A stretch of DNA of 21,566 nt, from contig JWZX01001583.1 in NCBI GenBank assembly GCA_001275005.1, forward strand, positions 1 through 21,566. The letters are read 5' to 3'. The number at the start of each line of letters is the position of its first letter. Position 1 is the stretch's first letter. The notes under the pieces were generated by a model, which ran no database searches, was not told the DNA's origin, and saw only the letters and a list, made by a program, of their open reading frames with translations. The position numbers were made by a program, and so were the translations under genes. Origin of the DNA: Chrysochromulina tobinii (Eukaryota > Haptophyta > Prymnesiales > Chrysochromulinaceae). Positions 238 through 21,566 of the stretch are shown in pieces.

Positions 238-2798
238 CTACTTCTTCTTCAGTTTGGCTTCATGAAGCTTTTGTTCAACCATGTTGATGACCTGCTCAGT
301 TGCAATCAGGGCCATGCTAGGCATGAGGCATGCAGGTATTTGTGAAGTCACCTCCAGAGACGCAAGCCATTTAGCTGTAGCAGATGCATCGACATGAGCA
401 TGGTGCCACTCAGACTGAGTACCCCCTACAAACGTTTCGTAGTTGTTCCGATTTGATCCAAGTGTGATCTTCGTCTTCTGACCTTGTGGCTGAGAATTGA
501 TGTGGTTCTTGAGGACACAGTGAAGACCAGCAACCAAATCTCAGATACGCGCTGGGGAGCGTTAAGCGGGTAAAGGTTAGAGCAAGGGGCGATCTGCGAG
601 CCCACCCTCGAGCTCCCCGCGTATCTTTTATCTCACACTCATTCTCGGTCACGCTCACTTTTGGCCCACGTTCAACTCACGTTCGCTCACGCTCGGTACT
701 TCATGCTGGGCTTACACTCACATTTGGCTCACTTTTGGCCTCACTCTTGGCCCATACTCGGCCCTTCCGCCATCACGCTCGCATGCTCTCAATTCGCACG
801 CCCTGTACCATCTCTCATGCAGTGTAACCCCCTCGCTTGTCCAAACACTAAAACGTGCCTGTCTTAACGGGCTCCGTAGCATGCTCCGCAACGACCCTCA
901 GCGGTGTGCAGTGGCAAACAGCGGTGCTTGGCAACACTAAGTGCCTGTCTTATCGGGCTTGGTATAGCATGCTCCACAACAACCCTCGGCGGTGCGCAGT
1001 GGCAAGCAACGGTGCTCGGCGGTGCTCAGTGCCCGCAGCGACGCGATCGTGCTCGCGTCATTCCTTCAGCGCGTTTCTGCATCTGGCACACGCATTGCCC
1101 GCAGAGGTGCATGATGCGGTGCCAAACGGGCACTTTGGCCACTTCGGTTTCGTAGCCAACTCACCTGTTGCAAGGAGTGGCTGGCACCTTGCACATGCGT
1201 GTGTCTTACCATTGCAGCTAGCCATCATGAACGGGCACGTATAGGTCGTGGAAGTTTGCTTACCACCCTGGCCGAGTAGACAAGCTTGCCGTTGCTTCTC
1301 CAAGTAAACATCGTGAGCATTTTTTGCCGAACGACGTACGGCAGGAGTAATTGTCATCCGGATCCCATTCTTTTTGACGAAGACCGTAAACGTCTCGGTC
1401 TCGTACACGTTGATCGCTTTGACTTGCGCTTGAATTTCCGGGAGCTGCCACACAGACGGGTCAAAGTCAAAGCCAATTGCGCCCGAGATGATCTGTGTAA
1501 GGGACAGTTCAGAGATAAGGTTTGAAGGATAGAGAGTGTCAGAACAATCATTCACATTGATGGCAATCTCAAAAGCACATAACCTGATTGAGAGTCGGGG
1601 CCGTTGTCGATGACCCCGTGAGCAGATTCAGCGCGAGGCGCATGAGTCGGCCACCGGCAGCAAGCGTGATGGCGGCGGCCTTTGTAGTCGCGAGATTGCG
1701 CCGGTCATTGGAGACCAGCACCGTGTGGTACGTGTTGGTGACGAACACATTTGAGCGTGAAGTAAAAGCGGAGAAGAGCTTGTTTCCCGCTTGAAGCCCG
1801 ACAAGAAGGATCACGACGACGAACCCCTGGTCAAGCAGCGAGTCCACGTATCTGAGGTTCTGGATGACGCCAAAATCTTTGTTCTCCACAGTCGGCTTCG
1901 CTCCATCAGAGGGGTGAAATCCCAAACATAGATCCGACACCAGAACGTCTTCGAGTGGGTAGGTCGATCCGGCAAGACACACGCGCAGCGCACTCAGTAG
2001 CACCTTACCACTGGGGCACGCAGGGTCCATAATGTCGTTAGCTGCCTTGTTCATGCCCTCGCCGATCACCATTAAAGCAACGGGTTGCAAAGATGCGTCG
2101 AATCGCCTGACCGTGGCATCCAGGTTTTTAATGCGTGACAAAGGCTCCCCGGGCGATGTGTACCCAAGCGCTTCCGAATCGTCGATAATCTGCTGGGTGA
2201 CCATGCCCTGCGTGAGTGCAAAATCCGAGGACGAAGTTGTGGCGTTGGCAGGGTCGGTGGCGGGGTCGGGGGCGAGGGCGGATGCCACCGCCAAAGAAGA
2301 GGCGGAGGCTGAAGTGGAAGTTGAAGCTGAGGTTGAGGCGGAGGCGGAGGCGTGTACGGCAGCGGCGGCGGCGGCGTCTTGCTGTGCCGTAACCGTTACC
2401 ATCATCGATCCCATTTCTGAAGAACCTTGTGCCATGTTCTGCCTTGCACGTCTGATATCAGCAGGACCCGCTGCTGTTCCTTTTAGAACACTCAAGCCAT
2501 TTTGAATTGCCCTGGAAGATGGTGGCATTGTCCACATCTCGTTCTCATCCTCCTCGCCACTCGAGACAAGGTCAATCGTACCACCGCTTCCTACAGGGAA
2601 CGCGAGGCGCGGGGTCGGCGGCGCAAGGCAGGCCGCCTGGATGAAATATGGATGGTCGTCCGGATGGTCGTTCTGTGCAAAGTGCTCCGGATTCTTGCGG
2701 TAGCACTTGGTCCCGTATTGACAAAGTGGCTTACCCGGGGCACGCGTGTAGATGAGCGGCGCCGGCGGCATGACAGCCGTAGACCCAGGCTCCGCCAT
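238..2798 (-). CDS. PBZ zinc-finger protein with SUMO-interaction-like motif, three predicted exons
   Basis: The predicted exons are 2798-1584, 1492-1264 and 539-238, giving about 581 residues. The start is the first ATG of the frame and sits in a good context (ACCCATGGC). Intron 1 (1583-1493) is phase 0, GT to TTACACAG. Intron 2 has a strong donor GTAAGC at 1263; its acceptor (ending at 540) is weak, so exon 3 is tentative. Residues 26-45 match the PBZ finger exactly: C26-x5-C32-x6-H39-x5-H45 with the CYRKNPEH core. In APLF and CHFR this finger binds poly(ADP-ribose) at DNA damage or mitotic checkpoints. Residues 75-84 (IDLVSSGEED) look like a SUMO-interaction motif. A Ala/Ser/Thr-rich low-complexity tract follows (about 145-170). 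The remaining ~400 residues are a globular region I do not recognise. A nuclear role in ADP-ribose and SUMO signalling is inferred. The base composition is lower in GC than in neighbouring genes. Confidence 0.7.
655..770. repeat. Degenerate short repeat rich in TTGGC / CTCAC words
   Basis: Words such as cttttggccc, acgttc, gctcac and cttggccc recur irregularly. This is low-complexity sequence with no clear unit. It lies inside the predicted long intron of the PBZ gene. Confidence 0.5.
855..1019. repeat. Diverged 86-bp tandem duplication
   Basis: The segment from 855 (gtgcctgtcttaacgggct) recurs from 941 (gtgcctgtcttatcgggct). Both copies continue through a shared core (gcatgctcc, aaccctc, ggcggtg or agcggtg, gcagtggcaa) to about 932 and 1019. 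The copies differ at scattered bases and by small indels. They lie in the predicted second intron of the PBZ gene. Confidence 0.75.
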
Positions 2799-3011
2799 GG
2801 GTCTCAAGGAGATGCAAATCCGGGAACGAATCTAAATGAGCCGAGAGAGCTCGTTCCGATCACCGCGGACAAAAAGTGCATGCGTAACAATCACACGAGG
2901 GACACGTTTGTACACCCGTTCAAATCGGACGCCCCAAATCTCACTCATGCATGAAAAAACGATCCCAAACATGCGCCCTGTGTCGGCCGGCGCAGAAAGT
3001 CCAGAAAGCAA
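2799..3011. promoter_or_regulatory. Short divergent (bidirectional) intergenic region
   Basis: These 213 bp separate the ATG codons of two genes transcribed away from each other, so the stretch must hold both 5' flanks. I see no convincing TATA box. The function is inferred from gene layout only. Confidence 0.45.
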
Positions 3012-7373: not shown

Positions 7374-10300
7374 TCACCGCCTGCTGCTGCTCGCTCCGTT
7401 CCGTCGAGAAGAGGGTTGTCGCACCGCCGCAGTGCTAATGGGCTGTGAGGCCTTCGTCGTCCCCCCTAAGAGGGAGAGCGCAGCCGCGGCCGTCGAGAGC
7501 ACACGCACGGCCCGGTTGCTGCCGCTGGTACTGCTTCTACCGGTACTACTGGTACTACTGGTGCAGCCGCCGCATAACGCCGATCGTTGGGCCCTCGACT
7601 GCGACGACGCCGTCGGCGGCAGAGCCCCAACGGCAGTAGCGGCGATCGGCTTGGAGGTAACAAGTCTTCCACTAGTGCGCGCGTTGAGCTCCGCCATGGC
7701 TGGCTGCAATGAGCGGGCTTGGAGCGGGTGCGGGTGCGGCGACGGCGAGGGCGACAGTGAGCGCCGCGACGAGAGCGACGGCGAGTGCGGCACCTGCAAC
7801 GAAGGCGACGGGGGCCGATGCGCGGCTTGTGACGTGTGCTGCAGGTGCTGCAGCGCCTGTGCATGCGTCTGCGCCTCTGCGTCCGCCTGCGCCTGTGCCA
7901 CGAAGGAGCGCCATGCGTGCGCCTGTGCCTCCGCCTGCGCCTGCGCCTGTGCCTCCGCCCGCGCCTGTCGCAGGATGCTGAAGTAGCGGCCGATCGAAGA
8001 CATCTGTGCGATGCGCCGCACGTCGACATAGGCGGGCGCGCCGTGACGGGCGCCTGCGCCCCCGTCCCCACTCTCCTCGATAGCCGCCTCAAACAAGGCG
8101 GCGAGCTGGGCGGCGGGTACCACGATGCCGTACGCGCTCGTAATCTGACCCATCAAGCGCGCCCAGCACGGCGCGTCGACGCGCCCGTCGCCGTCGGGAC
8201 AGAGCAGCTGGTACGTGCCGAGCACCGCCTGCGCAAACGGGTCCGACGCAGGCTGAGCGGCCGTCAGCGGCGGCGCCGCCATGGGCAGTCCTGCTACCGC
8301 ACCGGCCGCGGCCAAGCTGCCGCCGCCCTGCGGCCGCAGCAGCGCGCGCGCTGCCGGCGCCGGCGCCGGCGCTGCCACCCAGAGAGATGGTAATCGACAT
8401 GTCGCCGCTGCGCACGCAAGCCTTGGCGCCTTTGCGCGCCGTGCCCACGACAGCGCCATGCTTGCGCTCCGTGCCCCCTGTGACGCGCTTGCCCTCCGCC
8501 ATGATGAGCGCGGTGGCAGCCGCGGAGGTGCCAGAAGGCGCCGCCACGGGCGCCACCATGGGCACCAGTGGATGCCGAGCTGACATTATCGGCGAGCCTG
8601 CTGTACTACTGGACGGCGAGCTGCTCGCGCCAGGGGTGCCCTCGACGGCGCCCGGGGTGCCCTCGGATGCGTTCGTCCCGCTGGCGGCGAAAAGCCGGAT
8701 CGCCTGCGTCCACATGTCATACTCCGCAAAGGTTGGGGCGCGCAGCTTGAGCTCGCGCTCGGCAGACTCCACTGCGAACCGAAACACTTGCCCCTTAGTG
8801 GACTGGCTCAAATGTGCCCCCGCGCACTCGAGCGTGCCAGATGGTGGCTGGTCGGACTTCGAGAGTTCCTCATTCTTGTAATAGCATAGCGTCGAGCCGC
8901 GAAGCACGAACCAGCGCTTGTCCCACTTCTCAAGCAGCTTCACCTTGTTCGGCCCCTTGCTTCCGCTCCTCTTCTCGAGCCATCCGGAGACTGAGGCCAT
9001 GGCTGCGACGTGGACAGATGCATCCACAAGCCAATCAGGAGCGTCTTCGCCCAAGTCCATTCGTATTTCCATAGGCGAGGCAGCGATTGGCGAGGCAACG
9101 ATTGGCGCACTTGCCGATGTCGCGATTGGCGGCGCGATGGGTGTGCTTGGGATTGTGCTTGCAAATCGAGATGGTGCGGGCGCGGCAGCTGGTGGAGTCT
9201 CACTCGGGTGGGCTACGCGTAACACCACGTGCTGGCCTGAGTTAGCGACCAGGCGCAGCAGCTCCTCTTCGCTCGGGGTCTCCTCGAACGCAACCCCGTT
9301 GATCGAGAGCACGATGTCGCCCACGAACAGCAGCTTACGCTCATCGTCCACGTCGTGTGCGTCCGAGATGTGTTCGAGCCGAATGGTGCCGTCGCCGGGA
9401 GAGTGAAAGGAGACGCCGAAACGGCCGGCCGAGTTGCGCTTCAGCGTGCCAACTCGGCTATGTGCTTCGGCGGGCGCGGCAGCTGGTGGCGGCACCTTTT
9501 GCTGCTTGCGCACTTGCATGCGCACAAAGTCCGCGAAGTGAACCAGACCGTCCCCATCCGTGTCCACGGCATCGAACATGGCGTCGAGCGTGCTCACCTC
9601 GTGCGAGCGCCCGCGCGAGCCCATCGCTCGCATGGCCGCGCGGAAGTCGTCACGCGACACAACGCCGTCGCCGTCAAAGTCGAATTTGGCGAACATGCGC
9701 TGCGATGTGCGCAGCTCCTCGTCGCTCATCGTCGCTTGCACGCGTGCTTGCTCATCGGTGCTCAGCCCGGAAAGATGAGGCCGCCGAGGCAACGGCAGCT
9801 TTGGGATGGAGGGTGTCGATTGGAAGGAATGGGCCACAGCTGCGGGTGCGGCGGCGGCGGGCGCGTCGGCGGCGGGCGCGTCGGCGGCGGGCGCGGCGGC
9901 GGCTGGCGCGGTGGTGGCTGGCGCGTTGGCGGCGGGTGCGGCGGCATTCTCAGCCTTGGCCTCATCTCGCGCTGCTATCGCCTTGCTCCGGCCCGCTCGG
10001 CCACGCCTCGCGGCCTGCAGTTTGGTGGCCGCATCGTCTTCGGCTTTCGCCTTGGCTCGCGCGACCGTCGCCCTGCGATGAGAATCATCCTCATCAGCCT
10101 GGGCTTCGGCCTTGGCTGCGGCCTGGACTGCGGCTTCCTCCTCCTCACACCGCAGTGCTTCTAACTGCTCCCGCTGTGGCGTCGCTGGCATTGGCACGGC
10201 AGCACGACGAGAGGGTTCAGGCGCCGTTATGAGCGCCGTTGCTGCCGGTCGCTCGAGCATAGCAGTCAGCCTCGAGGGCTCGTCAGAGAGCTCGGCGGTG

Positions 10301-11994
10301 GCGGCCGCCGGCGCGGTTGCGTCGGCAGAAGGGACGTCGGCGACCGGCGTGGTGGCAGCGGCAGGCGGGGCGTCGGCGGCCGGCGCGGGCTCGGCAGCGG
10401 CTGAGGCAGCTGCAGAGCGAATCAAAGGCTCCAGCGACGGTCTCGCTGGCGATCGACGAGCCTTGGCCATCATCAACCCGTCGCCTTGCGTAAACGCGCC
10501 ATCCTCCTCCTCCTCGGGAACGAAGGGCTCCGGCGAATGCACAGCTTGCAGGCTGGCCCTCGCGTCTGCCTTCTCACGGAACGCTCGGCGATCACGCTGA
10601 CCGCGGCGTACAGCCTGAAGCTGGATCGCAGCAACTTCCTTCTCCTGCTCTGCCTTCCTCTGCTTTTTCTCCTCCTCCTCCTCCTCCCACTTCTGCTGGA
10701 ACTCCTCTGCCTTCTTCTTCGTTGGTTTCGTGCCTCGGAGCGCGGGCTGCACCACAGCTGCTGCCGCATCTCGTCGCTCCTCCCCGGATCTCGTCGCATC
10801 TCGTCGCGTCTCCCCAGATCTCGTCGCATCTCGTCGCTCCTCCCCAGATCTCGTCGCATCTCGTCGCTCCGTCATCTCCTCCCCAGAAAGCTCCTGCTTC
10901 ACCTTCCTTGCCTTCTTGGTGCGCACGGCAGACTGCAACACGGTCGCCGCTGCGTCCTGCTCCTCCTGCGGCTGCTGCATCATGGCGGCGGCCGTCAGGG
11001 GTGCCACCTTGTCCTCTTTCACCGAATGGACCAAGCGCGAGACCGTGAGCGTCACCTCCAAACCCTCGTTCACAAGCAGCTCCGTGAAGTTTGTCAAGAC
11101 CGAGACTGAGCGCCCGCCCACGGCCACAATCTGATCATCGATCTTGAGCGCGCCGCACCGGTCGGCGGGTGTGCCCGGAGCGCACGAGAGCAGCAGCGCT
11201 GCCCCGTTCTCGTCGAAGCCCACGCTAATCCCGAGCGACTCATCCTCGGTGAGCCGCACGAGCGTCACTTCGAAGATCCGCTCGGTCCACAGATGATCCT
11301 CCTCCTCCTCCTCCTCCTCCTCCTCCTCTGCCTCCGGCTCCTCCTCCTCCTCCACGTGACGCACCAACACCGCCTCCGCCTGCTCCACGTCCTGTGGCTC
11401 TCCCGCCTCAAACACCTCCTCAGCCACTGCGGCGGCCGTCAATTCCGTCGGCTTCGTCACCTCCTTCACTCTCCTTTGCCTATTTCGGTTTGTTTGCTGG
11501 ATGCATATGGCCGCCGCGGAGAGGCGCGCCGAGCGTCGGGCGCGCCAACGATCGACAGCCCTGCGCTGGACCACAAGAGCGGCGCGCTCGCATCGCCGCC
11601 AGTCGGCGATGCGCTCCGCAAAGGCACGCAGCACGGCATCGGCAGGCTGGCAGCTCAGCTTGCACAGTCGGCCCACGTCTCGCATGACGAGCCACATGTT
11701 GCGCTCGCTCGAGCCCAACTCGAAATCGTCGCCACGTCTGAGCCCTGCAGCGCTTGCGAGCACCTCGAACGATGCACGAGAGCTCAGACCCCGAAGTGGC
11801 GGCTGCTCCAAATAGCCTTCCCGGGCAAGCGCAGCTCGCAGGCCATCGAGAGGTAAAGCAACCGTTCCAAGACCCCAAAGGAGCTCGTGCTCTCGCACGA
11901 GCGCGTCCCACGAGTCTGCATCATCGGGCATCGGCGGTCCTATTGATGCGGAGACAGCGGCCGCCGTCATTCGCAGCAACACGTCCGGCGGCAT
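7374..11994 (-). CDS. Multidomain IQ-PDZ-EF-hand-PDZ-PH scaffold protein
   Basis: The start ATG at 11994 gives a frame open to 8089. A +1 change near 8300 is resolved by a GT-AG intron at 8378-8291 (88 bp), giving about 1,510 residues. Domains in order: IQ-like helices (135-175), a Glu-rich stretch (215-233), PDZ1 (239-320, SLGISVGF loop), an IQ-like segment (348-365), a 10-residue tandem repeat (377-410), a coiled coil with an IQ (430-475), Ala/Pro-rich linkers, an IQ (653-672), an EF-hand pair (loops 772-783 and 811-822), PDZ2 (847-930, RFGVSFHS) and PH (1003-1104, conserved Trp at 1096). The C-terminal exon adds a degenerate DGDG motif and Ala/Gln- and Ser-rich tails. IQ motifs bind calmodulin, PDZ domains bind C-terminal peptides and PH domains often bind phosphoinositides, so a calcium-regulated membrane-proximal scaffold is inferred. 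The intron lacks a pyrimidine tract, so an indel in the GC-rich repeat remains possible. Confidence 0.82.
8291..8378 (-). other. Predicted 88-bp GT-AG intron in the scaffold gene
   Basis: On the minus strand the donor GTGGCAGC begins at 8378 and the acceptor GGTAGCAG ends at 8291. Removing it joins ...SITISLG to LPMAAPPLTAAQP and moves the reading from the upstream to the downstream frame, which carries a clearly protein-like sequence to the stop at 7374. The sequence is a (GCCGGC)-type simple repeat with no pyrimidine tract, so confidence is moderate. Confidence 0.45.
9840..9960 (-). repeat. 15-bp-type Ala/Pro codon repeat inside the scaffold gene
   Basis: Tandem units of roughly 15 bp encode APAAD/APAAA-like residues (about 685-720). 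This is a flexible linker between the fourth IQ motif and the EF-hand pair. A similar but looser Ala/Pro tract lies at about 10300-10410. Confidence 0.7.
10777..10866 (-). repeat. Three 30-bp tandem units encoding RRDATRSGEE-type repeats
   Basis: The units are 10777-10806, 10807-10836 and 10837-10866, nearly identical. They read in frame as the ten-residue RRDATRSGEE, with one unit ending ET. A further partial copy lies on either side. The repeat is strongly charged and sits between PDZ1 and the coiled-coil/IQ region. Confidence 0.92.
11295..11355 (-). repeat. CTC/GAG trinucleotide microsatellite (poly-Glu)
   Basis: A run of ctc triplets on the plus strand gives GAG codons on the minus strand. 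It encodes the acidic stretch just N-terminal of PDZ1. Such tracts are prone to length variation. Confidence 0.9.
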
Positions 11995-12148: not shown

Positions 12149-13354
12149 ATGAAGTCAGCCAATGCCGCAGCACCCGCCATCCTCGACGCTCTGATCACCC
12201 TTGGCTCTGCTACCGAAGCACACTTGTCTTACGCGATGCTTGGGCTGCCACACCACATCCAGTTGGCCGCTCGTGCTGCCCAAGATCACTGCCGCCCGGT
12301 CGCCGCCCGGCTCAAGTCTCGCCGGATCGGCTCAAGTCTCCGGATTGAGAAGACCGCTCTCACCGCGGCGAGCTCGCAGGAGCTCAGCAATAAGGCGCAA
12401 TGGGACGCTCCGTCCGACATCCTTGGAGGCGACTTCGTGTCGCTCCTCGTCGGGAATAGCGCACCGCCTCTCAAGGAACTAGGCGAACTTGACTTCAGCG
12501 AGACGAGCACCATCGCGTACCCGACGCGTCGAATCGAGCACTACCGATTCGTTGCATCCCTATCGCTTCTCAATCGCTCCTGGTTGGTGGCTGCCCAGGC
12601 GTGGCGTCACGAACGGTGCACAATCTGCCTTGTGAGGCCGGACGATGCCATGGTGGGAGGAGTTGTGCGTCAATCGCCGAACGTCGTCGAGCTGCAGTGC
12701 CTGAGCGGTTCCACTGCAGCTCTCGCTCTGACGGACAACGCCCTCTCGTGCATCCGCGCAGTATGCTCAGGGCTGCAGCGGCTCGCGCTGCGCCTGGTGA
12801 CGATTGTGCCTACGACTGCGATCGTGCATTTGCTGGCGGGCTGCCCATCGCTACGAGAGATCGATTTGATAGGATCCGGTTTCACCCACTTGGAGGACTT
12901 CCGCGCAGGCGAATACTTCCGCGCCGGCGAAGACGGTACCTTCAACCAAGTTGTCGATGATCTTATCAGCGCTCTGGTAGCGCATCCGCAAGTGCGCGTC
13001 ACCATGTCTGCGTGCGACGACCTATACAGGTACCTTGAGGGTACTGCAGCGCACGATCAGATTCGATGCCTCACTTGCTTTGGAGTCAGGGAGCCGTTCA
13101 TGACCCGTAACCAGGCCGTGTGCGACACGTGCTATGTCGAAGCGCGTGCGGGTCAACCCGGCGGACGAGATCGCAAATTCTTAATGGAGTGGAATTTGTC
13201 AGCAGGTACATGCAGGCAGACTACAACCGGTCGCATCGTCTCGCGCTGGCCCGAGTCGCACCCCGCCAGAGCCGGCTGGGAAGACTTCGAATGGCAAAGC
13301 GAAGATGTGCGAGAGGGGCCGCGTCCAGGGCGGTGGCGTTTATCTCGAGTGTGA
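12149..13354 (+). CDS. LRR-like protein with C-terminal CxxC/CxxC zinc-ribbon-like motif
   Basis: The ATG at 12149 follows a C/T-rich leader and gives 401 residues in one exon. The middle (about 130-255) has an F-box/LRR flavour: a helical segment (SLLNRSWLVAAQAWRHERC), then spaced leucine-rich strands (SPNVVELQCL, LQRLALRLV, CPSLREIDLIGSG). No canonical F-box start is clear. At about 307-329 a C-x2-C-x15-C-x2-C pattern (CLTC ... CDTC) suggests a zinc-binding ribbon. The tail is Trp/Arg-rich and apparently disordered. Two short internal duplications are visible: cggctcaagtctc at about 12308 and 12329, and an FRAGEY/FRAGED pair at 12897-12934. F-box/LRR proteins are usually SCF ubiquitin-ligase substrate receptors, but that role is only a possibility here. 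The gene shares its 5' region with the PDZ scaffold gene. Confidence 0.65.
   Translation: MKSANAAAPAILDALITLGSATEAHLSYAMLGLPHHIQLAARAAQDHCRPVAARLKSRRIGSSLRIEKTALTAASSQELSNKAQWDAPSDILGGDFVSLLVGNSAPPLKELGELDFSETSTIAYPTRRIEHYRFVASLSLLNRSWLVAAQAWRHERCTICLVRPDDAMVGGVVRQSPNVVELQCLSGSTAALALTDNALSCIRAVCSGLQRLALRLVTIVPTTAIVHLLAGCPSLREIDLIGSGFTHLEDFRAGEYFRAGEDGTFNQVVDDLISALVAHPQVRVTMSACDDLYRYLEGTAAHDQIRCLTCFGVREPFMTRNQAVCDTCYVEARAGQPGGRDRKFLMEWNLSAGTCRQTTTGRIVSRWPESHPARAGWEDFEWQSEDVREGPRPGRWRLSRV
12897..12934 (+). repeat. 18-bp in-frame duplication (FRAGE motif)
   Basis: The motif acttccgcgc(a/c)ggcgaa occurs twice back to back and encodes FRAGEY then FRAGED. It lies just after the last LRR-like strand. 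Confidence 0.85.
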
Positions 13355-13937
13355 GAGAGGCTAGTTTGAGGGGCCGAGACGGCGTCGGCGCACGCTCTCA
13401 TGTCTCAAAACTCAAATGTTACTTGTTACTCAGTATGCACACGTCTTAGAGACGGTTAGACACTGTTACTCAATGCGGCGTCAAATTGTGACTCGCACTC
13501 CGGAGCTTCTCGGAGCACGGCGGGGCGGGGCGCGCGACGCTCTCGTCAGGTCGAACTCCCTGGACCCTGCGCGGAGCGAGCGTGGTGTCCCAGAGCTCCC
13601 GGTTCCCCCTGGGTCCGGTCTTTGTAGCACAGGTTTCACATCGACGCGGCTTGTGGGCCCGCCGCTTCAAGCTTCATTCATTTCCAAGCATGCACATGCT
13701 ACTCAGTTTCGCACCGAATTTCCCGGCGCGCAGGCTCAAGATTCCGTCGACGGCGGTGTGGGCGGTCTTGATGACTGAAATTTCGCCCTTTGCGCCGCGC
13801 CCCGCCGCGCCTTCGCGCAGGGGGTAGGCGAGGAGCGCGCAAACGGGCGCCGATCCGGTAGAACGTTGCTGTGCCGAGTGCCGTACTTGGCCACACACAC
13901 CGGTGTCTTCTAACCGTGTCTTCTCCATGTGTGTGAA

Positions 13938-15915: not shown

Positions 15916-18900
15916 ATGAGCAGGCGAAATCAAGGAACTCCGGATGACTCGAGTAGCTGCCCTGCAAACTCGCATGCTTCGGAGGGACGGGCGATGGATT
16001 CCGTCGAGCATGACCCGCAGCAGAACCCGCAGCAGAACCCGCGCCGGTCGAGCTCGATCAAGACGGTTGACCGCAAGATGTCGCAGGTGGCGGCGTTCTC
16101 GCCGTTGCTCGCGCGCTGGGAGCTCGAGCGGCACCACCCCGACAAGCTCGTCGCGCCCGGTGCCTTCGACTTCGAGAGCGCCCTCCTCTTTGTCGACATC
16201 AGCGGCTTCACCGCGCTGTGCACGAAGCTCGACATTGACGTGCTGCAGCGGCACATCAACACTTATTTCGGCGAGCTGATTGATGTGGTCTCGAAGCACG
16301 ACGGCGACGTGCTGCGCTTCGTGGGCGACGCGCTCTTTTGCGCGTGGTCGCTGCCCTGCGGCGCGGAGGACGAGGGCACTCTGGCACTCGCGACGCTCGC
16401 TGCGTGCCGTTGCGCCCTTGAGCTCCACCAGAAGTGCAGCTCGTACCTCATCCCCGAGGCGAACGAACACCTTTCCATGTGCGCGCCGTCGCCGCCTCCC
16501 CCCTCCCCGCCTCCCCCGAGCTCCTCTCCTACCTTGGCTCTCTCCCTGCTCCCCGCCCTGGCCCACCCGGCATCGCGTGGCCACCTAGCAACCCCCTCTT
16601 CTTATCCTTGACTCTGACGCCTCGCGCTTCGCGGCTTGCGTCCTCTTACGTCCTCTCAGACACTCGGGCGTTGGCGCTGGGAAGACCTCGGGTTTTCGCG
16701 TGGGGCACAAGGACCGATGGGAGTTCCTGATCGCGGGCGACCCGATGCGACAGGTGGCCGAGGCTAAGGCGCTCGCAAAGCTCGGCGAGACGATCGTCTC
16801 CCCTGAGGCCTGGGCTCTGGTCAGTCACGCATGCCAGGGTGATCCGTGCGAGGCCGCCACGCCCAGTGCGTCCACCGTCAGCCTCGGCAGCACGGCGAGC
16901 AATGGGACCAAGGGGAGCAAGCGTAGCCCGAGCATGGTGGGGATGCCGATGCGCCTCGTTGCGTGCGCCGTCGTCCGCGCGGAGCCGGTGGCAGAGGGCA
17001 ACGACGCCTTGCTGTTCGAGGATGCTCTCGAGAAGCGGAATGCCTCCGATGGGGTTGTGTGTGTCATCTGCTTTGACGAGGTCACGGAAGCAACTGGGGG
17101 GCGGGCTCTCGACTGTGCACACGTGTATCACCCGTACTGCATCGAAGGTTGGCTGAATCGTGCCGCCAGATGCCCGCAATGCCAATACCCCGTTCCAGAC
17201 CCCCCCCGAAGGGCTCGGAGGCCTTCCGCTTCTCGAGAGCATCACCGCCCAATTCTCCAAGCTTCGCTCGAGGCTTATGTACACGAGACGGCGCGCGAGG
17301 TGATCGAGGCGGACGTCGACCTCGAGCTGCTGAGCGAGATCGCCGAGCGACGTGTCGTGGTGGTCGGCTTCGGGCGCGTGCGTGGGCTCGACGCCGCGCT
17401 CGAGAATGGGAGCTCGGGACTACGTGATGTCCAGTCCTGCCTTACCACGTGTCTCGAGCCTATCTCGCAGAGCGGCGCACTGCTCCGACAGTTCATCTAT
17501 GATGGCAAGGGTGTCGTGTTGATCTGGACGTTTGGGCAGACGCGGGCCACCTTCGAGGACAACCCGCATCGTGGGCTACGCACCGCGCAGGCGCTCCACG
17601 AGGCTCTGAGCGCGACGGGCCTCTCGATCGACATTGGCATCACCTCGGGGGAGGCCTTCTGCGGCTTAGTGGGGGTGCCCGGCCGCAGGTGCGAGTATGG
17701 CGTGATGGGGCCGTGCGTCAACCTGGCGGCGCGCCTGATGTGCATGTGCGAGGCCAAGGGAGTCAACCTGCTCTGCTGCGACCAAATGAAAGCCGAGCTG
17801 ACCAAGGGGCGCGTCAGGGACGTGCGCTTCACCTCATATGACCCAGTCGTGGTGCGCGGGTATGCGGCGCTGGTAGGCATCCATCACCCACGTCGGGACG
17901 AGGCGCTGATGGACATGATGCAGCTGCTCGAGCACGTGCAGATCTACGCGCTGCTCACGCCGCGCGAGCAGTCCAAGTTTCTCGACGCGGTAGTCAAGCG
18001 CTCCTTCGATACGGGCGAAGACCTCATCGTCGAGGGCGATGCGGCCGAGCACTTTTTCATCCTAATGGATGGTACGGTGCACGTGACTAAGCGCACAATC
18101 GACGGCTCTGCCGTGGTACTGGTGCCGGAGCTCAAGCGCGGCGACAGCTTTGGTGAGGTCGCGCTCATCACTGGCTTCAAGCGTACCGCCACCATCACCG
18201 CCACCTCACTGGTCGTGGCGATGACCATCTCGCGTTCCGTCTTCATCGACCTGTTCGGCGGGATGGCCGATCTGCTCTCGAATCGGCGCGCGGGTATACT
18301 CAGGAATCAAGCACTTCCTTCGGACAAAATTTTTGAGTACCGTGACTCTTCAGCATGGATATGCAGCGATCCCTCGAGCGGTGTGCCGCCAAGCGTCCCC
18401 GGGTGCCTTCGCTCGACGTCATGGGATCATCTTCAACACCCTGGTGGCTCCGCCACAAACCCCGCTCTCCGCTCGTCGCGCGGCATTGCGGACAAGTTTA
18501 TGTTGCGCTCCGTTGGGCGCGAGACCGAAGCGCGCCATCTAGCCAACCGGGTTCAGGCTCTTTTGGCCACGGGAGAGCCCTCACTCACCTTGATGACGGG
18601 TGAGCCTGGCATAGGCAAGACTCACCTGCTGCGTGAGCTGCGACGGCTTTACGGCGAGTGTGAGCTGCAGGTAATGCACGCAGAGGGGCGTCGTCACGAC
18701 ATGGAGCCACTGTCTGTGTGGGTGCCGCTGCTGCAGGCGATGCTGGCCTCGCATCTGCAGAAGCCGGTCGCGCACGTCAAGCTCTCGGAGGCGCTCGATC
18801 TGGTGCCACCCGCGCTGCGCGGGCACGTTGGCCGCCTGGCGAGCTTGCTGGATGGCGCTGCCAAAGGGACCGTTCGTCGTCGTCGCCCCTACGCCGAGAC

Positions 18901-21566
18901 TGGCTCGAAGCGCCACCTCGAGGCCGAGTGCGAGATGGCCGTGCGCATCGCGTCGCACCTGATGAGCCTGCGCCCGCAGCTGCTGATCATCGACGCTGCC
19001 GAGAACCTCACGCCGTACGCGTGGCAAGTGCTCACGGGAGTGCTTGCCGCGGCGCCATCGGTCGCCGTCATCGTCTCATCTCGCGAAATGAACACCGGGT
19101 CCAACGGCGGAGCCTCCGAGGAGCTCTCGCGGTTGCGTAGGCGGTGCATGGCCCCAAATGTGAGCGCCACGTGCCGCATCTCACCCACGCTCGCGATCAC
19201 CGAGCTGCAGCTGGCTCCGCTTTCGCAGGTCGCCACGCGCGCGCTGCTCGCGAATGCCCTCTCCGTGCGCCCCGAGTCACTTGACGCCGCTACGGTGGCC
19301 AAGGCGCACGAGCGCTGCGGCGGCAACCCGGGGTTCTTGCTCGAGTTTTGCACACCCGACATTTCGACGGGCGCGTCGTCATCGCAGATCAACGAGGCGG
19401 TCGTGCGCTCCCTCGCGGAGCTCCCGCCGACCGTGACCGAGATCGTGCTTGCCGAGCTGGACAGGCTGCCAGTGCCAGCGCAGCAGCTCGTCAAGATTGC
19501 CGCGGCAATCGGAGTCCCGTTTGAGCGCCAGATGCTCATTGGGATCTACCCGGGCCGCGCCGCCGAGGTCGACGAGGCGCTGCGCTCGCCCGCACTCCTG
19601 AACTACCTTGTCGAGCTCTCCCCAACGAGCCACGTGGGTGGTCGCGAGACCCCTAAAGAGGGTGGCGAGGAAGGGGGTGGCCAGGAGAGTCCTGTCCCCG
19701 GCCCGTCTAACGGCGCCTCGCAGCAGTGGACGATCAAGAACCCGGCCGTGGGCGATGTGGTGAACCGGCTGATGCTCTTGTCGCAGAAGCAGAAGCTGCA
19801 CAAGCAGATCTCGGAATGGTACTTGCGCCTGTGCGTGCTGGAGACCAGGGGGGTGGCTGGAGACCAAGGGGGGATCGAGGAGCTTGTGAACCGGCTCGCG
19901 TACCACAGCTCGCGCTCGGGTGACGCCAACCTTGCGAAGCGTCATCTGCTCGCGGCGGGGTTTGGGGCGATCAAGCGTGGCGTCTACAAGGAAGCCGAGC
20001 GCCACTTTACCGAGTGCGTCGCCTTCGACGAGGACAAGACTGACCCGCTCTACGTGCGCGCCGCCGTCGCGCTGGCAGAGATGTACTCGCGCTATGGGCT
20101 CACGTTAGTCGAGGATCCGGCATCTGCCGGAGCCTCCGGATCCGTCCGAATCGTGGCGATGCTGCGCTCGCTGCTCGCGGCACAGCTGCCCCCGGGCGCC
20201 TCGCTCGATAGCCTCGATCAGGATGAGCTCACTGAGAAGATGATCACGCCGCAGACGATGCTCAACATGTCGCATGTGTGCCACTCGCTCGCATGGGCGC
20301 TGAGCAACGATGGCATCGGCGAAACCTCCCAACTGTCGGTCGAGAATTACTTCAACCACGCCATCCGGTTGCGCACTGCCGCGGGCCAGCCGCTACTTGC
20401 CGCCGAGTCACTCGCCGGCTTGGGCACCTATTTCCACGGCGTCGGGCTCTCTCACGTGGCAGTCGACCCGCTGCGCGCCAACGAGTACTACGAGCGCGCC
20501 TCGATGCTCCTCGAGCGCTCGTTGCAACTACGCGCGGCCGATCCTCGCTATGAGTGGTCAGTCGAGCTCGCGAGCTCACTCACGGCGCTTGGCGTGCTTC
20601 AGCGGGACAAGGGCGGCCACGACACCCTTCTGGCCGTGGGCACGTGCTTCTGGGCCTTTGAGCGGTACGGCGCGACGCTTGGCCCGTTCCATCCGCGCTC
20701 GTCGAGGGCACTCGACAGCCTGTGGCGAGCGTACCTTCAGATGGGCGAGGCCGCATGCGCGCTCGCGGTGCTGGCGATGCTCGTGCACCTTCGCGCGGCG
20801 ATAGGCACGCAGGACACCCTCTTCATGGAGGCGGCGTCCATGGAGTACAATGCGCTCAGCTCAACGTTCGAGCGCCCATGGCGGCGCGTATTGCCACGAC
20901 TGGAGTCGCAGATGGCGACCGCTCCACTGCATCCGACGCAAACGTTGTCTGAAATCGCGCCCACTCTCGCGGATCCGCAAGCCCGGTTGGCCTCTAGCCA
21001 TCGTACCGTCACCGATGAGATGCCGTCGAATTTGGTGAGCAAGGATGCCTTGCTGCTGTCCGGCATCAGTCTGTGCGAGCGCCTCCAGAGCGGCTACTTT
21101 GATCCTGTCGAGCACAAGGCGGCGGCAGAAGCGGCGGCAGAAGCGGCGGTGGGTGCGTCAGACCGTCAGTGTCGGCCATCTGCGGAGGACAATGGCGGCG
21201 TCGAGGCTGGCGCAGCCGGCAGAGGCAACGGCCGGAACGTGAGCCCGCAGTCGCGTCGTCGTGCCGGCCCGCTAGTCGTCCTGCCACACGTGAGAGTTCC
21301 ATCAAACGAGCAGTGGGAGGCGTCACGTACGGAGCTGCGCGAGGAGCTCTTCGTTACCTACCCGGAGCTCGACTTTTATATTGGGATGACGCTCGATGAG
21401 GATGGCATGCTTGGCGACGGAGCGACGGAGCTCAAGGAGTCTGTGGTCGCCTCGATGGAGCTAGCGGTGCAGCTGGCCGCCCTTGCGCGTGTCGAGAACC
21501 CTACAGAGCAACCGAATGCCGCGCTCGCGCGGCACTGCCCTGCGCTGCTCACGCTCGCCGCTCAAG
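15916..21566 (+). CDS. Soluble-adenylyl-cyclase-like protein with RING finger and cNMP-binding domain (3'-truncated by window)
   Basis: Exon 1 is 15916-16478; exon 2 runs from 16660 with no stop to the window end, giving at least 1,823 residues. The intron (16479-16659) goes from GTGCGC to a pyrimidine-rich TCCTCTCAG. Splicing joins EANEHLS to IHSGVGAGKTSGF and restores cyclase domain 1. Order: disordered leader (1-60), cyclase domain 1 (85-240), Ser/Gly-rich linker, RING-H2 (322-362), linker, cyclase domain 2 (420-562), cyclic-nucleotide-binding domain (about 613-724), P-loop NTPase (Walker A GEPGIGKT at 835-842) and a long helical TPR-like region (about 1200-1650). Paired cyclase domains, NTPase and helical tail are the architecture of ADCY10-type soluble cyclase, which makes cAMP from ATP in cytosol or cilia and is often bicarbonate- and calcium-regulated. 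The RING and cNMP-binding domains are unusual additions. No membrane segment or signal peptide is seen. Confidence 0.9.
16169..16820 (+). other. Cyclase homology domain 1 (coding region, interrupted by the intron)
   Basis: The class III signature FVDISGFT is at residues 92-99 with metal-ligand Asp94, and LRFVGDALFCAW carries the second metal Asp138. After the intron, WEFLIAGDPMRQVAEAKAL (from residue 208) matches the C-terminal part of the domain. It lacks the Asn-x3-Arg pair, as expected for a C1 domain. The residue four before Asp138 is Arg134, where human ADCY10 has Lys95. Confidence 0.88.
16479..16659 (+). other. 181-bp GT-AG intron in the cyclase gene
   Basis: The intron is phase 2 and strongly C/T-rich, with a branch-point-like ttgactctgac about 45 bp before the acceptor. 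Reading through it would end at a stop near 16609 after a Pro-rich nonsense stretch. Removing it gives a continuous cyclase domain. Confidence 0.85.
17021..17243. repeat. 29-bp inverted repeat flanking the RING-finger coding segment
   Basis: The left arm 17021-17049 and right arm 17215-17243 are reverse complements at 28 of 29 positions. Each contains the gatgctctcgagaagcgga core. The 165 bp between them contain the whole RING coding sequence. Both arms are translated, in different readings, within the linker of the cyclase. No target-site duplication is obvious outside the arms. Confidence 0.93.
17060..17182 (+). other. RING-H2 zinc-finger domain of the cyclase gene
   Basis: The ligands are C322-x2-C325-x14-C340-x-H342-x2-H345-x2-C348-x10-C359-x2-C362, a complete RING-H2 pattern. 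The usual Trp (W352) lies between ligands six and seven, and a Pro follows C359. RING-H2 domains usually recruit E2 ubiquitin-conjugating enzymes. All eight ligands are intact, so the domain is probably folded. E3 activity is inferred, not shown. Confidence 0.9.
17354..17782 (+). other. Cyclase homology domain 2
   Basis: The domain starts VVVVGFGRV at about residue 420. Lys471 in the YDGKG loop matches the purine-contacting lysine of adenylyl cyclases. Asn542 and Arg546 (VNLAAR) form the transition-state-stabilising pair of an active C2 domain. GITSGEAFCGLVG is the conserved core. The residue after EY is Gly535, where ADCY10 has Thr405, so the second purine-selecting contact is changed. Confidence 0.88.
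17933..18268 (+). other. Cyclic-nucleotide-binding domain (CNB)
   Basis: The fold runs from an N-terminal helix (LLEHVQIYALLTPREQSKFL) through the beta-barrel to the phosphate-binding cassette at residues 685-699. The cassette keeps Gly686, Glu687 and Arg696, needed to hold the cyclic phosphate and ribose. Thr697 follows Arg696 in KRTATI, as in the cGMP-preferring sites of PKG. It lies directly after cyclase domain 2, so product binding in the same chain is plausible. Confidence 0.88.
18590..21566 (+). other. NTPase (STAND/AAA-like) and helical TPR-like C-terminal region
   Basis: Walker A GEPGIGKT is at residues 835-842 and a Walker-B-like LLIIDAAEN ends in Asp966. Helical repeats follow, for example residues around YKEAERHFTECVAFDED and YYERASMLLERSLQL, which look like TPRs. 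Near the window end an Ala/Glu repeat (AAAEAAAEAA, nucleotides 21117-21148) and a disordered Arg/Gly stretch appear. The frame is still open at the last base, so the C terminus is missing. Confidence 0.8.

What the first reader, a model, noticed from the sequence alone, without database searches (positions are those of the whole stretch)
15916..21566. Soluble adenylyl cyclase fused to a RING-H2 finger and a cyclic-nucleotide sensor
One uninterrupted frame after a single intron links two class III cyclase domains, a full RING-H2, a CNB domain, a P-loop NTPase and helical repeats. ADCY10-type proteins have the cyclase-cyclase-NTPase-helical plan; I do not know of a described member with a RING between the cyclase domains and a CNB after them. 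The chain could make a cyclic nucleotide, sense it, and couple this to ubiquitination of itself or a neighbour.
Basis: partly seen in the sequence, partly recalled or inferred. Interest (0 to 1): 0.88.

Follow-up and report, generated by a model that had tools for sequence, protein, structure and literature searches.

The report
Algal cyclase gene carrying RING finger
In a microscopic alga, one copy of a large signalling-enzyme gene appears to have recently picked up a RING finger, a module that in other proteins attaches ubiquitin tags, from a small gene elsewhere in the same genome; what the combined protein does is not yet known.

Summary
After one GT-AG intron a single frame runs to the contig end (21566) and encodes two ADCY10-like cyclase halves, a RING-H2, a CNB domain, a P-loop NTPase and a probably helical region. 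The contig end cuts the gene. The host is a Chrysochromulina haptophyte, most likely C. tobinii. The cyclase-cyclase-CNB-NTPase plan is a haptophyte family plan (paralogue C1113, P0009, Prymnesium P0010). The RING is young and restricted: C1113 and other near-copies have an ordinary linker there; the RING DNA is about 90% identical to a stand-alone RING gene (C1353) and is bracketed by an inverted repeat. P0057, a database protein from another assembly (source label ena), carries the same in-frame cyclase-RING-cyclase-CNB junction, so this is probably not an assembly slip. P0057 departs from the window after the CNB, so RING and NTPase in one chain rest on this assembly alone. All eight zinc ligands and the main catalytic residues are kept, but a motif in CHD2 has a change unique to this copy and constraint looks weak near the RING. 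Cyclase activity, ligase activity and their coupling are inferred. A new variant of a known kind.

The parts
15916..16478 (+). Exon 1: N-terminus and first part of cyclase homology domain 1 (CHD1); start codon not proven
   Evidence: Translation; PF00211 at residues 89-177, 26.3 bits; 88% DNA to C1113 over 16034-16980; 473/484 identical bases to the end of C874 over 16035-16518
16479..16659 (+). Intron, GT...AG, 181 bp; joins ...LSI|HSGVGAG...
   Evidence: Sequence; the ADCY10 alignment continues across the join; splice dinucleotides shared with C1113
16660..21566 (+). Exon 2, open to the contig end (1635 complete codons); C-terminus missing
   Evidence: contig length 21566
16180..16822 (+). 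CHD1 (interrupted by the intron); keeps the Asp motifs FVDISGF and FVGDALFCAW
   Evidence: Best PDB match ADCY10 first half, E=1.3e-14; motif positions
17003..17199 (+). Inserted stretch, 90% DNA identity to the stand-alone RING gene on contig C1353 (11849-12054)
   Evidence: absent from C1113, which has about 102 bp of ordinary linker between the flanking alignments
17060..17185 (+). RING-H2 domain, all eight Cys/His ligands
   Evidence: PF13639 35.6 bits, cut-off 27.3; alignment A2
17021..17049 (+). Left arm of an inverted repeat that brackets the RING
   Evidence: 29 nt, 97% complementary to 17215-17243
17215..17243 (+). Right arm: inverted copy of the stretch that precedes the RING; by eye the likeness extends left to about 17200
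17249..17902 (+). Cyclase homology domain 2 (CHD2); keeps Lys in YDGKGVV and Asn/Arg in VNLAAR
17999..18256 (+). Cyclic-nucleotide-binding domain with phosphate-binding cassette FGEVALITGFKRTAT
   Evidence: PF00027 62.8 bits; PKA/PKG domains in PDB
18290..18398 (+). Variable linker: 109 bp here, 713 bp in C1113 between the flanking alignments; frame differs between copies
18512..19060 (+). AAA_16 / STAND-like P-loop NTPase (Walker A GEPGIGKT at 18599)
   Evidence: PF13191 40.8 bits
19061..21566 (+). Probable helical-repeat region, cut off by the contig end
   Evidence: Sel1 and TPR_12 below cut-off

Best explanation
This is one copy of a haptophyte family of very large ADCY10-like cyclases (CHD1-CHD2-CNB-P-loop NTPase-helical; paralogue C1113 adds a weak C-terminal nucleoside-hydrolase-like match). 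In an ancestor close to C. tobinii a piece of a small stand-alone RING-H2 gene was copied into the linker between the two cyclase halves, with an inverted duplication at its right edge, and the frame was kept (a gain from copied DNA: supported by comparison; repair with template switching as the route: inferred). Most likely the two halves still pair and make a cyclic nucleotide, the CNB binds it, and the RING hangs from the interdomain linker and recruits an E2, so that the cyclase or a bound partner is ubiquitinated (all inferred). I put about 0.8 on the fusion as a real gene beyond this one assembly (set slightly below my first figure of 0.85 because the origin of P0057 is known only by the label ena) and about 0.35 on an active RING ligase in it; the figure given is for the whole.
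For: Domains. Paralogue without RING. RING DNA matches one other place in the assembly (2 candidates scored). Stand-alone relatives P0086 and P0087 in the protein database. Same in-frame junction through the CNB in P0057 (source ena, 18 member sequences, 2 contigs). The two RING cyclases are one clade (97/97) nested among RING-less rows in a tree of 18. RING core differs from the stand-alone gene at 2 residues with all eight ligands kept. CHD2-CNB versus C1113 dN/dS 0.40.
Against: Codons 1-106 of exon 2 versus C1113 dN/dS 1.17, exon 1 0.75, NTPase-to-end 0.70, helical part 0.81: weak or relaxed constraint. The window has G where all 14 other rows that cover the site have D (DDKG motif). The residue at the Thr of ADCY10 EYTVIG is Gly. 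The RING fold was not modelled with confidence (mean pLDDT 45.6; under 50). P0057 leaves the window's sequence after the CNB, so RING with NTPase in one chain is seen in one assembly only. No transcript was seen.
Confidence: 0.5

Rival explanations
1. Passenger: the RING insertion is real but neutral, in a redundant copy that is drifting towards a pseudogene; no ubiquitin function.
For: Near-identical copies without RING exist (P0002, P0062); dN/dS near 1 beside the insertion; the window-only D-to-G change in DDKG; frame differences between copies in the linker after the CNB.
Against: Long frame intact; RING ligands all kept at dS about 0.12 from the stand-alone gene; identical RING in P0057; CHD2-CNB dN/dS 0.40.
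Confidence: 0.3
2. Splice variant: the RING stretch is, in part of the transcripts, removed as an intron, giving an ordinary cyclase and a RING form.
For: A GT donor at 16988 and an AG acceptor ending at 17239 lie either side of the RING and keep the frame (sites listed; frame worked out by hand); the paralogue's linker has no RING.
Against: The stretch is stop-free, open in its stand-alone relatives, and its ligands are kept; the sites are only dinucleotide matches.
Confidence: 0.12
3. Assembly chimera: the RING cyclase is a misjoin in a 454/Illumina assembly of several similar copies.
For: At least three copies, two of them (C667, C874) cut by contig ends; a run of 8 C at 17200-17207 at the RING's right edge; inverted repeat; mosaic P0002-P0007; the published C. 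tobin assembly was shredded and rejoined with Phrap (passage of PMC4580454).
Against: The RING is 90% identical to C1353, so it is not that contig misplaced; P0057, which differs from the window at 16 sites between residues 450 and 706 and so is not the same assembly, has the same two in-frame junctions. A misjoin further 3', after the CNB, is not excluded.
Confidence: 0.08

Closest known systems
Human soluble adenylyl cyclase ADCY10
   Same: Best PDB match for both halves, in the same order; P-loop NTPase and long helical region after them (the ADCY10 plan beyond the solved part is recalled)
   Different: ADCY10 has no RING or CNB (recalled); Thr of EYTVIG is Gly here
Haptophyte relatives: C1113 paralogue, P0008 (named Chrpa1 / Chrysochromulina_OHIO, which I read as C. 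parva), P0009 (organism not named), P0010 (Prymnesium parvum)
   Same: Cyclase, CNB and AAA_16 in the same order (P0008 by precomputed Pfam and alignment); P0010 shows both cyclase halves
   Different: No RING; ordinary linker between the halves
P0057 (database protein, source ena)
   Same: Identical from residue 203 to 449 of the joined protein, which spans the RING; CHD2 and CNB follow
   Different: 16 substitutions between residues 450 and 706, then another linker and end of frame after the CNB
Stand-alone RING-H2 gene C1353 / P0086 / P0087
   Same: RING with 90% DNA identity for C1353; all ligands
   Different: Small protein, no cyclase; no inverted repeat found at C1353
Hanusia phi cyclase P0055 (cryptophyte)
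   Same: PF00211 and PF00027 listed in one protein
   Different: No RING or AAA_16 listed; read from the hit table, plus the RING pattern scan

Membership tests
ADCY10-type soluble adenylyl cyclase | Two class III cyclase halves in one chain, each nearest the matching ADCY10 half among solved structures | tested here: met
   cyclase fold of the second half
ADCY10-type soluble adenylyl cyclase | Metal-binding Asp pair in CHD1; Lys, Asn, Arg in CHD2 | tested here: met
   FVDISGF, FVGDALFCAW, DGKG, VNLAAR aligned; which residues are catalytic is recalled
ADCY10-type soluble adenylyl cyclase | Adenine-contacting Thr in CHD2 (recalled) | tested here: not met
   EYTVIG of ADCY10 is EYGVMG here and in the Chrysochromulina copies read; EYSVMG in P0010; alignment
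ADCY10-type soluble adenylyl cyclase | P-loop NTPase then long helical C-terminus | tested here: inconclusive
   NTPase met; helical repeats below cut-off and the C-terminus is missing
ADCY10-type soluble adenylyl cyclase | Bicarbonate-stimulated cAMP synthesis (recalled) | not testable with these tools
   needs an assay
RING-H2 E3 ligase | Eight Cys/His ligands with RING-H2 spacing | tested here: met
RING-H2 E3 ligase | E2-contact Ile, Trp and Pro (recalled) and basic linchpin after the last Cys (recalled) | tested here: inconclusive
   CVICF, GWL and CPQC present; the residue after the last Cys is Gln
RING-H2 E3 ligase | RING fold in a model | tested here: inconclusive
   mean pLDDT 45.6 with 5 rows
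RING-H2 E3 ligase | E2-dependent ubiquitin transfer | not testable with these tools
   needs an assay
Cyclic-nucleotide-binding domain | Phosphate-binding cassette with Glu and Arg | tested here: met
   FGEVALITGFKRTAT
Cyclic-nucleotide-binding domain | Ligand binding and choice of cAMP or cGMP | not testable with these tools
   RTA at the end of the cassette recalls PKG (recalled) but does not settle it

The most novel reading that the evidence does not exclude
A self-contained switch in one chain: the cyclase makes a cyclic nucleotide, the CNB on the same chain reads it, and this turns a RING E3 on or off, so that second-messenger synthesis and ubiquitin marking are joined; and the module was assembled so recently that copies with and without the RING still coexist.
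Probability: 0.12. Interest if true: 0.85.

Novelty: new variant of a known kind. Interest (0 to 1): 0.52.

Why it matters
It catches a domain gain in an enzyme while a donor-like gene, RING-less near-copies and the RING copy all still exist at roughly 10% divergence, so how a RING is grafted in frame into a multi-domain protein can be studied. If the RING is active it would be, to my knowledge and within the seven paper searches that bear on it (listings and abstract starts only), the first cyclase with a built-in ubiquitin-ligase module.

Tried and rejected
Considered and set aside: that the CNB is the novel part (it is family-wide); that C1353 and the window are one sequence misplaced (90% identity); that the RING is ancestral and lost elsewhere (would need several losses; the RING rows are nested, though the fork that joins them to the RING-less near-copies has only 81/84 support). 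The RING models were poor, so I ran no fold search with the RING model. The structure search of the long model covers CHD2 and hardly tests the RING or CNB. Paper searches found nothing on this fusion; I saw listings and starts of abstracts, and of PMC4580454 passages. Target-site duplication was not seen: no direct repeat of 12 nt or more in 16900-17330. A raised divergence on both sides of the RING, which I first suspected, holds only to the left: 44 of 68 compared bases in 16934-17008 against C1113; to the right 63 of 74, no lower than the lowest windows elsewhere (63 of 75 at 17834). Both large cyclase searches scored only the 7992 and 7994 candidates sharing most words, within a length range, so other RING cyclases may have been missed. 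The dN/dS figures come from my own Nei-Gojobori script on few codons and are rough.

Full report

Host. The assembly has 53.15 Mb in 2253 contigs. A protein named guanylyl cyclase, partial [Chrysochromulina tobinii], on a contig of 13661 bp (P0075), matches the end of contig C874, also 13661 bp, at 98% over 13155-13661 and at 96-97% further up; the published genome has 59 Mb, 3,472 contigs and 63.4% GC (passages of PMC4580454). I take the host to be C. tobinii; the smaller total here is not explained by any search.

Family. Contig C1113 holds a paralogue, 84-85% identical in protein over three stretches and 72% over a fourth of exon 2, whose exon-2 frame of 2911 codons ends at a stop and shows cNMP_binding, AAA_16 and, below cut-off, a nucleoside-hydrolase-like match near the C-terminus (30.3 of 34.2 bits); P0009 shows the same three (the last at 31.4 bits). 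P0010 of Prymnesium parvum has two cyclase stretches, CNB and AAA_16. Hence the CNB and NTPase are family traits.

The RING. In C1113 the window's 16981-17241 is replaced by about 102 bp of linker. In the assembly the RING DNA has one other match, C1353:11849-12054 at 90% (2 candidates scored, so a lower bound), in a small RING-only reading frame; other RINGs of the genome are far more distant (32-38% in protein; C459, C2202, C1696, C630, C151). P0086 and P0087 are database relatives of the small gene. Of 84 distinct database proteins found in the two cyclase searches (55, 31, two shared), one, P0057, lists RING families; a RING-H2 pattern scan of all 87 proteins held (those 84 plus P0001, P0086, P0087) hit P0001, P0057, P0086 and P0087 only. 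In a tree of 18 rows (16 of the 84 plus the window and C1113) the two RING cyclases are one clade (97/97) beside RING-less near-copies (81/84), with 8 of 15 inner forks open. The simplest reading is a gain from the stand-alone gene. Synonymous divergence of RING from C1353 (0.119, 66 codons) is like that of the window from C1113 (0.067-0.135), so the gain may be about as old as the copies; these are rough figures.

Scar. A 29-nt inverted repeat (17021-17049 / 17215-17243, 97%) brackets the RING. The right arm is an inverted copy of the stretch before the RING and keeps bases that C1353 has but the window's left arm lacks. Divergence from C1113 is clearly raised only on the left (44 of 68 bases in 16934-17008). 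This looks like repair synthesis with a template switch, which is inference. No inverted repeat of 12 nt or more was found in the stretches of C1353 and C1113 tested.

Is it real? P0057 (source ena, 615 aa, 18 member sequences, 2 contigs, longest 31.7 kb) agrees with the window from residue 203 to 449 of the joined protein without a difference, which spans the RING, then differs at 16 sites between 450 and 706 and, from about residue 729, in linker and frame. From which sample it comes is not stated. P0066 shows the downstream flank typical of the RING copy. Against this, P0002-P0007 are identical to the window over long 3' stretches but have no RING and a distinct 5' part, and are mosaics of window-like and C1113-like pieces; their sources are blank. 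So the RING junction is supported twice, while its linkage to the window's NTPase half rests on this assembly. C874 ends within the intron and is 473/484 identical to the window there: a third copy of unknown content. The P0002-type 5' part has no place of its own in this assembly.

Function. CHD1 keeps both Asp motifs and CHD2 keeps Lys, Asn and Arg, so catalysis is possible; the Thr that contacts adenine in ADCY10 (recalled) is Gly in the Chrysochromulina copies read and Ser in P0010, so substrate choice is open. The window has G for D in DDKG, unlike all 14 other rows that cover the site. The CNB cassette is canonical. The RING keeps eight ligands and the usual E2-contact residues (recalled) but has Gln at the linchpin place. 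dN/dS against C1113: 0.75 in exon 1, 1.17 in codons 1-106 of exon 2, 0.40 in CHD2-CNB, 0.70 in the NTPase-to-end part, 0.81 in the helical part; RING against C1353 0.46 from 5 synonymous and 8 other changes. This is why the passenger reading stays at 0.3.

Splicing. From the sites, a donor at 16988 and an acceptor ending at 17239 would remove the RING in frame (my arithmetic). Nothing here tells whether it is used.

Verdict. Observation confirmed; interpretation partly supported. A new variant of a known kind: a young RING graft in a haptophyte ADCY10-like cyclase.

Noticed in passing
L019:968-9700 (C1113), residues 2476-2744 of the frame; also P0009: Nucleoside-hydrolase-like C-terminus (PF01156, just below cut-off) on the RING-less cyclases: an unusual partner for a cyclase. 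The window copy is cut off before it.
   Followed up: partly
window 18290-18398: Linker after the CNB is 109 bp here and 713 bp in C1113, with a shift of frame that is later compensated; other copies run into a different frame here.
   Followed up: partly
window 8092-11994 (-): 1301-residue frame with PDZ, an EF-hand pair and a PH domain.
   Followed up: no
window 1572-2807 (-): Frame with a PBZ zinc finger (zf-CCHH, 42.4 bits).
   Followed up: no
L020 (C874), contig coordinates 9934-12436: Exons upstream of a third CHD1 copy that the C. tobinii gene model P0075 joins to it; P0075 finds no counterpart of them in the window, so either the model fuses two genes or copies differ at the 5' end.
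   Followed up: partly
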